Source: Candidatus Peribacteria bacterium (lineage in GTDB: Bacteria; Patescibacteriota; Gracilibacteria; Absconditabacterales; Absconditicoccaceae). Taken from it: 61,244 bases of DNA. Location of the stretch: positions 1 to 61,244 of the forward strand of contig JAISMG010000005.1 in the NCBI GenBank assembly GCA_031276875.1, written 5' to 3'. The notes under the pieces were generated by a model, which was given only the letters and a program-made list of their open reading frames with translations, was not told where the DNA came from and ran no database searches. Of this stretch, positions 1,248 through 41,881 are shown piece after piece; the stretch's first letter is position 1, and each line of letters starts with the position of its first letter. Made by a program: the position numbers and the translations under genes.

Positions 1248-2696
1248 TTATTTTTGAGCTTCTTTCTTCCTTTTTTCTGCCTCAAAGAATTCAATCGCTT
1301 CTGCCAACTCCTCGTGGTCTTTAGCGTAATCGTGAATATCTATCCCTTTCTGATACGCTTCACAAGATTGGACTAATGCTGTAGCTCCTACTTTCGTTCC
1401 TTTAGGATGAGCGTGCGTTCCTGCTCCCATCGTAGTGATAAAGTCTACATTTCCCATCAAATCAATAAAGGGCTTCAAGAGCGTTGGATTTAATCCTCAC
1501 GAAATAATCGGACAGCATTTTTTGAGCCCTCTCCACGTGTCATCTTCCAAAATTTCAATACTTTTGGCGTCTAATGCCTCTATCGCGATGAAATCTTCAT
1601 CATTCACAGGAATTTTTGCCCACGATTGTTCAAAGGTATGTCCCTTTTTGAAAAGATGCAAAATTCCTTCTGCTGCGACAATGTCTTCACTCGGAGTTCC
1701 TGCCATTTTCCCAACTCCTGCTGTTCCAGTATGAATACCACTCGCTCCCGCTAATCTTGCAAATTTGGAAAGCACCAATACCGTATATCCAATCGGATTT
1801 TCTGGTCTGGTAAATGCTCCGTGTCCTGCTCTGTGAAAGTGAATAAACACATCAGGATATTTTCTTCTCAACGTTTGTACTGCCATTCGTCCTGCCGTGG
1901 TTCCATCAATGAGGAATGCATAACTTCACGGTTCAAATCCAGCATTTCTGATGAGTTCACATCTAGCTAACATTGTATCATAGTCAGAAGCAGAAACATT
2001 AAACGAATGCACTTTTTTGTGTCAGGTTTCTTTTACTGCTTTGTCCATTGCTTGTTTTACGTGAGCTACCATTTTGTCATAGGGACAGAAATCTTGGTCG
2101 GCCTGAGGTTCATCATTTTTTACGAAATCTCCGCCTCCTACCCAGAAATCATAACAGACTTCCGCATATTCAGCAGAAGAAAGCCCCATTTTGGGTTTGA
2201 TAATCGTTCAGAGAATAGGTCTACTGTACACGTTTAAATATTTTCTCATATCATCTAAGGTATAACTTGGTCCATCATATTGTTCTAGCATTACTGGAGG
2301 AAACCAAACGTCAAGTAATTTCAAAGCCTTGACCTCTTTCATTCCAAAGACATTTCCTGCAATGTAGGTCATAATATTTTGTACATTCCCTTCCCTATCA
2401 AAGAGTCTCCAAGGATACGCAATTTTCACCACGCTATCCTCCATATCAATGTCATAGACCAACGCATTTAAAAGTCTGGCGTAAGGTGTTTCTGTTTGGA
2501 CGAGAAAATTGGTTCCTGTACTACTTTCTGCAGAAACTTCAGCAGCAGCCTGAAGGATGTTTAATTTCCCTCAAGGGATCAGGTGAAACGACGCAAGCAT
2601 ATAATCTCCATTATAAGGATTTGCAAGGTCGAGATTGACGTACGCTAATTGATGTTCATTAAGCGTAGTAAGAAGTTCTTTGGCGTTTTGTGACAT
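1248..2696 (-). CDS. Ribulose-1,5-bisphosphate carboxylase, form II/III
   Basis: This 482-residue protein carboxylates ribulose-1,5-bisphosphate. In CPR bacteria it is thought to act in the AMP nucleotide-salvage pathway rather than the Calvin cycle. The catalytic KPK is at residues 167-169, the metal-binding segment GGGDFVKNDE ends with carbamylatable K193, D195 and E196, HFHRAGHG lies at 286-293, the loop-6 region HTGTAGVGKM ends with K330, and the phosphate-binding SGG is at 399-401. HxHRAGHGA plus a long chain points to form II/III. Five UGA codons are in frame, one encoding G400 of SGG, so under the standard code the gene looks shattered. Its promoter lies at 2748-2775. AMP phosphorylase and ribose-1,5-bisphosphate isomerase, the usual pathway partners, are not in the window. 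Confidence 0.95.
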
Positions 2697-24394: not shown

Positions 24395-24422
24395 TTGATT
24401 TTGGAAAGGGATTTTGTATGCT
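24395..24422 (+). promoter_or_regulatory. Promoter of the tRNA-Gly(UCA) gene
   Basis: TTGATT (24395-24400), a 16-base spacer and TATGCT (24417-24422). The tRNA 5' end is 31 bases downstream. Confidence 0.5.
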
Positions 24423-24453: not shown

Positions 24454-24527
24454 GCGGATATGATGTAGTTGGTGTAGCATAGCAGACTTCAGCTCTGCTC
24501 GTACGGGTTCAAGTCCCGTTATCCGCT
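24454..24527 (+). tRNA. tRNA-Gly (anticodon UCA), decodes UGA as glycine
   Basis: The acceptor stem GCGGATA pairs with TATCCGC, with discriminator U at 24527, as in bacterial tRNA-Gly. The anticodon stem GCAGA/TCTGC encloses the seven-base loop CTTCAGC, giving anticodon UCA. The T arm is ACGGG-TTCAAGT-CCCGT. The G1-C72, C2-G71 and U73 glycine determinants plus a UCA anticodon explain the UGA codons read as Gly throughout the window. CCA is not encoded. Such a tRNA is the known hallmark of SR1 and Gracilibacteria. Confidence 0.93.
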
Positions 24528-24548: not shown

Positions 24549-24794
24549 ATGAAACAACTTCTTCTTGGACTTTTATTTATGGGGATTGGGGGTGCACTAA
24601 TGTATTACTCTTACCCGTTAATGGAAATGTTTGGAAGAAATGCGTGGGCTGAGAGAAATTTAGGAGGAACGAGAAATTTGATACTTTTGGTAGGGTTTCT
24701 CTTGATGTTGGTAGGAGGATTGGTGATGTTTGGGATTGTATCTTTGACTTCAACCGGAGATATTCCTTCAGGACTTGGTACAGATGTTTCATAA
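24549..24794 (+). CDS. Small two-helix membrane protein
   Basis: An 81-residue protein with two hydrophobic helices (about 3-22 and 44-68) joined by a short loop, FGRNAWAERNLGGTRN. It sits 21 bases after tRNA-Gly(UCA) and 6 bases before tRNA-Tyr, so it is probably expressed from the same tRNA transcript. No UGA and no recognised family. Confidence 0.55.
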   Translation: MKQLLLGLLFMGIGGALMYYSYPLMEMFGRNAWAERNLGGTRNLILLVGFLLMLVGGLVMFGIVSLTSTGDIPSGLGTDVS

Positions 24795-24800
24795 AAAAAT

Positions 24801-24883
24801 GGGGAGATGGCAGAGCGGTCAATTGCATCAGACTGTAAATCTGACGCCTCACGGCTACATAGGTTCAAATCCTATTCTCCCCA
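24801..24883 (+). tRNA. tRNA-Tyr (GUA)
   Basis: The acceptor GGGGAGA pairs with TCTCCCC, with discriminator A. The anticodon loop contains CTGTAAA, giving GUA. A long variable arm (GACGCCTCACGGCTAC region) is present, as expected for bacterial tRNA-Tyr. CCA is not encoded. Confidence 0.92.
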
Positions 24884-24901
24884 AATTATGAAATATGGAA
24901 T

Positions 24902-24977
24902 GCTCCCATAGTTCAATGGATAGAACAATCCCGCAGTCTTGCGGGATGGATACAAGTTCAATCCCTGATAGGGGATG
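24902..24977 (+). pseudogene. Broken tRNA-Arg copy with a palindromic insert in the anticodon arm
   Basis: The first 27 bases equal those of the tRNA-Arg at 24990. The anticodon arm is replaced by ATCCCGC-AGTCTT-GCGGGAT, a 7-bp hairpin with a six-base loop. The T stem is damaged (ACAAG opposite CCTGA) and the acceptor end is imperfect. The replaced arm matches the CCCGCAG...CTGCGGG core of the dispersed repeat family. A normal anticodon loop is impossible, so I call it a tRNA pseudogene. Confidence 0.75.
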
Positions 24978-24989
24978 GAGGAAGGGAAT

Positions 24990-25061
24990 GCTCCCATAGT
25001 TCAATGGATAGAACAACAGCCTTCTAAGCTGTGGATTCAGGTTCGATCCCTGATGGGGGTA
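24990..25061 (+). tRNA. tRNA-Arg (UCU)
   Basis: GCTCCCA pairs with TGGGGGT (including G-U pairs), with discriminator A at 25061. The anticodon stem ACAGC/GCTGT encloses CTTCTAA, giving UCU, which reads AGA/AGG, the main Arg codons here. A 15-base fragment of its 5' end, TTCCCATAGTTCA, recurs at about 25171. Confidence 0.9.
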
Positions 25062-25075
25062 GGTTGTTAAAAAAT

Positions 25076-25148
25076 GGGCTCTTAGCTTAGTTGGTAGAGC
25101 GCCTGCTTTGCACGCAGGAGGTCAGGGGTTCGACTCCCCTAGAGTCCA
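25076..25148 (+). tRNA. tRNA-Ala (UGC)
   Basis: GGGCTCT pairs with AGAGTCC, including the G3-U70 wobble that specifies alanine. The anticodon loop is TTTGCAC/CTTTGCA, giving UGC, and the T arm is GGGG-TTCGACT-CCCC. Discriminator A; CCA not encoded. Confidence 0.95.
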
Positions 25149-25284
25149 ATTTTAAAAAGAATGAGTGGTGTTCCCATAGTTCACAAAATCCACACTAACA
25201 GTTGCACAGATATTTTACTTGAAATCAATACTATTCGTACAGAGAAATACTATATAGGAAAATCAGAACTAACATTATCATACA

Positions 25285-28866: not shown

Positions 28867-30018
28867 TTAACTTTCTAACATTTTCTTTTTCCAGTCGCTC
28901 AAAATACGGTTGAGATATACGATATTATGCAATCCCAATAAAATCCCACCCAGCATTTCTTTCTCTTTTTGGAGATGATGGAAATAGGCTTTAGTGAAAT
29001 TTCTACATGCATAACAGTCACACGTTGAAGTAAGAGGTGAAAAATCTGACGCATATTTTGCGTTGGTAATTTTTATCAGTCCTTCATCAGAAAAGGCGAT
29101 ACCGTGTCTGCCATATCTGGTTGCACTCACACAGTCAAACATATCAATGCCTTGTTCTATCGCAAACAGCAAATCTTCTGGAGTTCCCACGCCCATCAAA
29201 TATCTTGGCTTTTCATTTGGCAATTTGGGGGTAGTGTAGCTGATGACTTCTTGTACTTTTTCCTTTTCTTCTCCTACACTTACACCACCGATAGCGATAC
29301 CGTCTCGGGCATATTCCGACAAAGTCTCAATACTTTCCTGCCTCAAATCTAGATAGCTTCCCCCTTGGATAATCGGAAACAACACGCCTCTCGCCTCGTC
29401 ATAATAAGGTTGAAAATGGTCAAAGGCTCTTTTTGCTCGGCGGTGAGTCATTTGCATTTGTTTGGCAACGGTGGTTTTATCTGCGGTTCAGGGTGAGCAT
29501 ACATCCAGCACCATCATAATATCTGACCCCAAAGCTCTTTGGGTATCTACGACATTTTCCGGAGTGAAGAAGTGTTTGGAGCCATCATAAGGTGAGGAGA
29601 ATTTGACGCCATCTTCTGTTAGCTTGATGTTTACTTGGTGTCTAGGGGCTTCTTCGCTTTGCTCAGAATGACGATTGGAAAGTCAGAGAGAAAAAACCTG
29701 AAATCCTCCACTATCGGTCAAAATGAGTCCATCATTTCGATGTTCAAATTGGTGTAAACCGCCTGCTTGTTGGATGAGTTCGCTTCACGGGCGGAGATAG
29801 AGATGAAAGGTATTGGCAAGGATAAGTTTAATCGGGTCAATTTTTGTTCCAATGTACTTTGGGTCGCGGAGCAGGTCAAGGATAAGTCCTTTGATGGTTG
29901 CTTTCGTTCCAACAGGCATAAAAACGGGAGTTTGAAGAGTCACTCCGTTCAAGGTGAGTTCGCCCACGCGGGCATTTCAGCGTTGTTTGAGGATTTTGAA
30001 GTTGAGTTTTGATTGCAT
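28867..30018 (-). CDS. tgt: Queuine/preQ1 tRNA-ribosyltransferase
   Basis: A 383-residue TIM-barrel enzyme that exchanges guanine 34 of GUN-anticodon tRNAs for a queuosine precursor. Visible are [13 protein letters not shown] with the catalytic Asp, [37 protein letters not shown] and the zinc ligands CDCYACR...HH. A 12-13-residue stretch ([13 protein letters not shown]) after FSLGLS has no counterpart in the family and is encoded by a palindromic repeat. Four UGA codons are in frame. CGA at 29737 and 29437 sits where Tgt has Trp (F-xx-W before the LTDSGG motif, and T-x-W-AKR). Substrates in the window include tRNA-Tyr(GUA). Confidence 0.93.
29649..29672 (-). repeat. Palindromic repeat copy inside the tgt coding sequence
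   Basis: CTTCTTCGCTTTGCTCAGAATGAC read on plus is the reverse complement of the GTCATTCTGAGC-xxx-CGAAGAAG family core. It is translated within Tgt as RHSEQSEEA, keeping the frame open. Confidence 0.8.
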
Positions 30019-41428: not shown

Positions 41429-41456
41429 TTGAAAAACTATAACAACTTATTATACT
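41429..41456 (+). promoter_or_regulatory. Promoter of the thioredoxin gene
   Basis: TTGAAA (41429-41434), a 16-base spacer and TATACT (41451-41456), 35 bases before the chosen ATG. An in-frame ATG at 41429 overlaps this promoter and is rejected as the start. Confidence 0.6.
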
Positions 41457-41491
41457 TGCTCGTGCAATTTTATTCTTTACGCAGAAAAACG

Positions 41492-41881
41492 ATGACTAAT
41501 ACGATACGTATCACCTCCAAAGAACAGTTTAAAACAGAAGTAGCTCAAGGTATGAGTGTAATTGATTTTTACGCTGACCGATGTGGACCTTGTAAAATGT
41601 TAGCTCCCATTATGGAAGAACTTCAAGCCGATAATGCCTCCAAAGGCGTTAAAATTCTGAAAGTTAATGTTGATGAAAACCCTGATTTAGCAGCAGAATT
41701 TGGAGTGAGTTCTATTCCTACCGTCTTTTTTTCCAAAAATGGGAAGATTGTAGAAGGAATGGTAGGAGCAAACCCAAAAAGTGTATATCAAGAAAAAATT
41801 GATAGCTATCTCGCAGAAGGAGTAGGAGCAGCCCCAGAAAACGCAGACCAAGAACATATGGATAGCCATCTTGCCGCATAA
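41492..41881 (+). CDS. trxA: Thioredoxin
   Basis: A 129-residue dithiol oxidoreductase. The active site is D-x-C31-GPC34-K, with x = CGA at 41579-41581; read as Trp it is the universal WCGPC. VIDFYAD, the cis-Pro region SIPTVFFSKNG and VGANPK follow the family. An alanine-rich acidic tail extends past the usual 105-110 residues. The start at 41492 is chosen because a promoter overlaps the upstream ATG. Confidence 0.93.
   Translation: MTNTIRITSKEQFKTEVAQGMSVIDFYADRCGPCKMLAPIMEELQADNASKGVKILKVNVDENPDLAAEFGVSSIPTVFFSKNGKIVEGMVGANPKSVYQEKIDSYLAEGVGAAPENADQEHMDSHLAA

What the first reader, a model, noticed from the sequence alone, without database searches (positions are those of the whole stretch)
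24454..24527. tRNA-Gly(UCA), the decoder of UGA, with its own promoter
The tRNA has Gly determinants (G1-C72, C2-G71, U73) and a clean seven-base loop with UCA. It heads a cluster with tRNA-Tyr, Arg and Ala. It directly accounts for UGA as sense. The encoded 81-residue membrane protein lies between it and tRNA-Tyr.
Basis: partly seen in the sequence, partly recalled or inferred. Interest (0 to 1): 0.75.

Follow-up and report, generated by a model that had tools for sequence, protein, structure and literature searches.

The report
Glycine tRNA that reads UGA
This is the transfer RNA that lets an Absconditabacteria (SR1) bacterium read the usual stop codon UGA as glycine; it is real and well supported, but the same change of the genetic code has been published for this group since 2013.

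Summary
A complete tRNA with anticodon UCA lies at 24454-24527(+). It has the glycine determinants G1-C72, C2-G71, G3-C70 and U73, and a promoter-like TTGATT-16-TATGCT upstream that recurs in 19 of 20 relatives (about 1 expected). It heads a conserved cluster: tRNA-UCA, small membrane protein, Tyr, (Ala), Arg, (Glu).

In two alignable proteins across the family, UGA codons fall on columns that are 67% Gly in standard-code relatives, the same as GGA (69%). The genome's only RF1/RF2-type factor is RF1; no prfB was found. The first Gly of that RF1's catalytic GGQ is itself a UGA codon. SelA is absent from all 36 family genomes, so the ARAGORN label tRNA-SeC is wrong.

The organism belongs to the family of SR1 bacterium RAAC1_SR1_1. 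UGA=Gly there is published, so the core finding is already known. NCBI table 25 is also incomplete here: CGA (probably CGG too) is read as Trp, as published for Absconditabacteria in 2021.

Side observations for which I found no publication: UGA-coded GGQ glycines, a family-specific RF1 GGQ loop, G37 in every family tRNA-UCA, and the conserved membrane-protein gene.

The parts
24395..24400 (+). -35-like hexamer TTGATT of the tRNA promoter
   Evidence: conserved upstream of tRNA-UCA in 19 of 20 family genomes
24417..24422 (+). -10-like hexamer TATGCT, 16 nt after the -35
   Evidence: relatives mostly TATA
24454..24527 (+). tRNA-Gly(UCA), decodes UGA; CCA not encoded
   Evidence: ARAGORN, Rfam, relatives, position map
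24549..24794 (+). 81-aa two-helix membrane protein, no Pfam or NCBIfam match, conserved at this place in 17 of 20 relatives
24800..24884 (+). tRNA-Tyr(GUA)
24901..24976 (+). degenerate duplicate of tRNA-Arg(UCU) with the anticodon arm replaced by an 8-bp hairpin; probably a pseudogene
   Evidence: (23.2 bits, below the cut-off of 29)
24989..25062 (+). tRNA-Arg(UCU)
25075..25149 (+). tRNA-Ala(UGC)

Best explanation
The feature is tRNA-Gly(UCA) of an Absconditabacteria (SR1) bacterium. It is transcribed from its own sigma-70-type promoter, probably together with the small membrane protein and the tRNAs behind it. It is charged with glycine by the ordinary GlyRS through the acceptor end G1-C72, C2-G71, G3-C70, U73 and the C35 it shares with tRNA-Gly(UCC). 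It inserts glycine at UGA. RF2, the only other factor that would read UGA, has been lost, and RF1 alone ends translation at UAA and UAG. Shown here: the gene, its conservation, the promoter footprint, Gly at UGA positions, RF1 only, no SelA. Inferred: charging, co-transcription, decoding in the cell.
For: Anticodon and determinants. UGA cells are 67% Gly in standard-code relatives against 69% for GGA, 69% for GGT and 72% for GGG. Window RuBisCO: all 5 UGA codons align with Gly of the closest solved structure. RF1 alone: 137 of 182 UGA cells lie on columns whose majority residue is Gly, background 6.6%. The GGQ of the own RF1 is UGA-GGN-Gln, and 15 of 22 family RF1s have UGA in GGQ. The own RF passes TIGR00019 prfA and fails TIGR00020 prfB. 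Genomes of the four recoding families f1, f14, f22 and f24 have one RF1/RF2-type gene, while most others have two or more. Code 25 raises coding cover of the window from 64% to 88%. The family contains RAAC1_SR1_1. Published: Campbell 2013 as cited in PMC8629427, PMC8080830 and PMC13092985; proteomic proof in a BD1-5 relative, PMC4032931.
Against: No charging or proteomic data for this organism. The own genome is only 68% complete, so absence of prfB there alone would prove little; the claim rests on the relatives. Some UGA sites are not Gly in relatives (for example TGT 177, AspRS 164), as expected for variable positions. In family f14 UGA is also sense, but no UCA tRNA was found by pattern or among 30 of 34 tRNAs of one genome.
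Confidence: 0.97

Rival explanations
1. It is a selenocysteine tRNA (the ARAGORN label).
For: UCA anticodon; ARAGORN calls it SeC.
Against: Canonical 7-bp acceptor and 4-nt variable loop, no long variable arm. SelA is absent from all 36 family genomes while the control search finds it in E. coli. UGA occurs 133 times in the window's genes on Gly columns.
Confidence: 0.01
2. It inserts tryptophan at UGA (a Mycoplasma-like code).
For: UGA to Trp is the commonest bacterial reassignment.
Against: U73 and C2-G71 are Gly, not Trp, features. UGA columns are Gly, with no Trp among the five commonest residues. Trp is carried by UGG and CGA instead.
Confidence: 0.01
3. UGA is a stop and the in-frame UGAs mark pseudogenes or suppression at low level.
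For: None beyond the general prior.
Against: UGA makes up 13% of Gly codons across the window's genes, including RuBisCO, AspRS, TGT and the GGQ of the only release factor. Relatives have up to 26 UGAs in the matched stretch of TGT alone. RF2 is missing.
Confidence: 0.01

Closest known systems
tRNA-Gly(UCA) of SR1/Absconditabacteria (Campbell 2013; RAAC1_SR1_1, CP006913; SR1 MS502-49)
   Same: Same family of genomes; the copy in MS502-49 (L159) is identical over all 74 nt and that of RAAC1_SR1_1 (L166) is 96% identical. Same determinants as the rule used in PMC8629427.
   Different: Nothing essential.
tRNA with UCA anticodon of Gracilibacteria-like families f22/f24 (L131-L133)
   Same: UCA anticodon, GCGG...CCGC U73, RF2 absent.
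   Different: A37 instead of G37, an aberrant D arm without the GG of the D loop, encoded CCA.
Absconditabacteria CGA/CGG to Trp reassignment (Shulgina and Eddy 2021, PMC8629427)
   Same: CGA on conserved Trp columns in this window: TGT 94 and 194, RuBisCO, the WCGPC site of thioredoxin.
   Different: A sense-codon change; not due to this tRNA.

Membership tests
NCBI genetic code 25 (SR1 and Gracilibacteria, UGA=Gly) | tRNA with UCA anticodon and G1-C72, C2-G71, G3-C70, U73 | tested here: met
NCBI genetic code 25 (SR1 and Gracilibacteria, UGA=Gly) | UGA codons at conserved Gly positions | tested here: met
NCBI genetic code 25 (SR1 and Gracilibacteria, UGA=Gly) | no release factor 2 | tested here: met
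   own genome 68% complete, but relatives of 91-100% completeness agree
NCBI genetic code 25 (SR1 and Gracilibacteria, UGA=Gly) | organism belongs to SR1/Gracilibacteria | tested here: met
   near-identical tRNAs in named SR1 and Absconditabacteria genomes, including RAAC1_SR1_1
NCBI genetic code 25 (SR1 and Gracilibacteria, UGA=Gly) | CGA and CGG remain Arg, as written in table 25 | tested here: not met
   CGA columns are Trp 43%, Phe 31%, with no Arg among the five commonest residues, like TGG; CGG has only 6 cells
NCBI genetic code 25 (SR1 and Gracilibacteria, UGA=Gly) | tRNA is charged with glycine | not testable with these tools
   needs a charging assay
Selenocysteine tRNA | selenocysteine synthesis machinery (SelA) present | tested here: not met
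   0 of 36 family genomes
Selenocysteine tRNA | 8-bp acceptor stem and long variable arm | tested here: not met
   7 bp and a 4-nt variable loop

The most novel reading that the evidence does not exclude
In this family the supply of tRNA-Gly(UCA) gates termination itself. The only release factor cannot be made active without it, because the catalytic GGQ glycines of RF1 are read from UGA in 15 of 22 genomes examined. RF1 has at the same time acquired a family-specific GGQ loop (A-x-S-S-x-GGQ-[NH]-A-N-K-N instead of R-x-S-G-A-GGQ-x-V-N). If the two are linked, there is a feedback between the UGA decoder and translation termination, a mirror image of the UGA frameshift that controls prfB in other bacteria.
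Probability: 0.08. Interest if true: 0.6.

Novelty: already known. Interest (0 to 1): 0.25.

Why it matters
It confirms from raw sequence, with independent evidence, one of the rare bacterial codes in which a stop codon is glycine, and shows that this genome needs a code that NCBI table 25 does not describe (UGA=Gly plus CGA, probably CGG, =Trp). Any annotation of such genomes with table 11 truncates genes, and with table 25 places Arg where Trp belongs. The changed GGQ loop of the sole release factor is a separate lead for people who study termination.

Tried and rejected
(1) tRNA-Sec: rejected by the absence of SelA and by the tRNA's shape. (2) That the cell avoids UGG at essential Trp sites because tRNA-Gly(UCA) could misread UGG by wobble: CGA and UGG are used about equally at the invariant Trp column of TGT (16 and 14 of 30 genomes), so not supported. 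(3) Loss of PrmC as the cause of the changed RF1 GGQ loop: PrmC-like genes are present in most family genomes, the own one included (163 bits, below the curated cut-off of 199). (4) The simple promoter scan found no promoter on the + strand; replaced by the comparison of relatives. (5) Tex as a test protein: no true orthologue in the standard-code relatives, only S1-domain matches. (7) Campbell 2013 (PMC3619370) is not held in the library and is cited through other papers.

Full report
What is there. A tRNA gene with anticodon UCA lies at 24454-24527 on the + strand (ARAGORN; Rfam tRNA 60.8 bits). The stems are complete: acceptor GCGGATA/TATCCGC with U73, D stem ATGT/GCAT, anticodon stem GCAGA/TCTGC, loop CU-UCA-GC, T arm ACGGG-TTCAAGT-CCCGT. 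G1-C72, C2-G71, G3-C70 and U73 are the elements by which PMC8629427 classifies tRNA-UCA of this group as glycine acceptors. The genome's other recovered glycine tRNA, tRNA-Gly(UCC), shares the GCGG acceptor start and the CGGG...CCCG T arm. CCA is not encoded.

Who it belongs to. The window is one whole contig of a 1.23-Mb, 38-contig genome of 68% estimated completeness. Exact searches for the family form of this tRNA in named genomes return SR1, Absconditabacteria and Gracilibacteria records, among them the complete genome of SR1 bacterium RAAC1_SR1_1 (L166) and SR1 MS502-49 (L159, identical over 74 nt).

UGA is glycine. Reading the window with UGA as sense raises greedy coding cover from 64% to 88%, and UGA is 13% of Gly codons in the likely genes. 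With UGA masked as X, the five UGAs of the RuBisCO gene all align with Gly of the closest solved structure. Three of four in TGT do, and one of three in AspRS. The broader test uses TGT from 30 and RF1 from 22 family genomes against standard-code relatives of the same class. UGA columns are 67% Gly, against 69% for GGA, 69% for GGT, 72% for GGG and 65% for GGC. This is what a synonymous glycine codon should give.

Release factors. The only RF1/RF2-type gene in the own genome is RF1 (TIGR00019 446 bits, cut-off 423; TIGR00020 271 bits, cut-off 370), with the RIPET form of the PxT codon-reading motif. In a sample of 192 genomes of the class, genomes of families f1, f14, f22 and f24 carry one such gene, apart from weak ArfB-like second hits in some f1 genomes, and most other families carry two or three. 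RF1 of these four families contains UGA codons. Single-hit exceptions elsewhere (G039, G058, G063, G091, G109, G120, G124, G139) were not followed up except G039. The glycines of the catalytic GGQ are themselves UGA in 15 of 22 family RF1s: UGA-GGN in the own genome, UGA-UGA in seven others. Because GGQ is invariant in release factors (established knowledge), this is direct evidence for glycine.

Not selenocysteine. SelA is absent from all 36 family genomes searched (control: found in E. coli), and the tRNA lacks the long variable arm of tRNA-Sec.

Promoter and operon. TTGATT(24395-24400)-16 nt-TATGCT(24417-24422) was not reported by the simple scanner. The same arrangement, TTGATTT-16/17-TATA, stands upstream of the tRNA in 19 of 20 relatives against 1.05 expected from Markov sequences, maximum 5 of 500. 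Behind the tRNA, an ORF for an about 80-residue two-helix membrane protein begins 13-102 nt downstream in 17 of 20 relatives, often with UGA codons of its own. It has no Pfam or NCBIfam match. tRNA-Tyr, Ala, Arg(UCU) and Glu(CUC) follow in most relatives; in this genome Glu(CUC) lies elsewhere. Co-transcription is inferred from spacing and order. I have no evidence that the membrane protein has to do with decoding.

CGA stands at Trp positions: TGT 94 (Trp in 23 of 25 relatives), TGT 194 (25 of 25), the Trp of the thioredoxin WCGPC motif and the TAGWMA site of RuBisCO. Across the family CGA columns are 43% Trp and 31% Phe, with no Arg among the five commonest residues, like UGG (34% and 27%), whereas CGU, CGC, AGA and AGG columns are Arg. 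CGG agrees but rests on only six cells. The tRNAs with anticodons CCG and UCG have G73. This is the reassignment published for Absconditabacteria in PMC8629427, so table 25 alone mistranslates this genome.

Comparison with what is known. UGA to Gly is published for SR1/Absconditabacteria and Gracilibacteria (Campbell 2013 and Rinke 2013 as cited in PMC8629427; PMC8080830 for Vampirococcus; proteomic proof in a BD1-5 relative, PMC4032931). The tRNA found here is a member of that published set. Structural points I did not find reported, though I read only open-access papers: every family-f1 tRNA-UCA recovered has G37, while f22/f24 have A37 and a different D arm, and the GGQ loop of RF1 is changed in f1 only (22 of 22; f14, f22 and f24 keep R-x-S-G-A-GGQ or close to it).

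Verdict. Observation confirmed; interpretation supported; kind already known. Interest is low to moderate: the main value is confirmation and the warning about table 25. The RF1 loop and the UGA-coded GGQ are leads for someone else.

Noticed in passing
L044 874-1950 (+) (own RF1) and RF1 of 21 further family genomes: The loop around the catalytic GGQ of the only release factor is changed in all 22 family genomes examined (A-x-S-S-x-GGQ-[NH]-A-N-K-N), while related UGA-recoding families keep R-x-S-G-A-GGQ or close to it; PrmC-like genes are still present.
   Followed up: partly
window genes; TGT 28867-30018(-) codons 94, 194, 238; thioredoxin 41429-41881(+) codon 51; RuBisCO 1248-2696(-) codon 270: CGA encodes Trp here (published for Absconditabacteria); table 25 would write Arg. 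CGG probably too.
   Followed up: yes
24901-24976: Duplicate of tRNA-Arg(UCU) whose first 32 nt repeat is exact and whose anticodon arm is replaced by ATCCCGCA-GTCT-TGCGGGAT; not seen in nine relatives checked; probably a pseudogene or insertion. A third fragment of the 5' end lies at 25169-25183.
   Followed up: partly
L326 (G039, same class): Genome reported 100% complete with a single RF1/RF2-type gene, which carries the RF2 motif SPF; RF1 was not found. Either missed or lost, which would leave UAG without a release factor.
   Followed up: no
G035 (family f12): Genome 94% complete with no RF1/RF2 match at all, yet 14 UGA codons inside its PrmC-like gene: another UGA-recoding lineage, or a divergent release factor.
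   Followed up: no
family f14 (for example G037): UGA is used inside RF1 at conserved glycines and RF2 is absent, but no UCA tRNA was found by pattern or among 30 of its 34 tRNAs; its UGA decoder is probably divergent.
   Followed up: partly
all family-f1 tRNA-Gly(UCA), e.g. window 24491: Position 37 is G, unlike the A37 usual for tRNAs that read codons beginning with U, and unlike the tRNA-UCA of families f22/f24.
   Followed up: partly
1248-2696 (-): A RuBisCO large subunit close to solved archaeal/CPR-type form III or II/III enzymes (854 bits to 8vgs), with five UGA-coded glycines.
   Followed up: no
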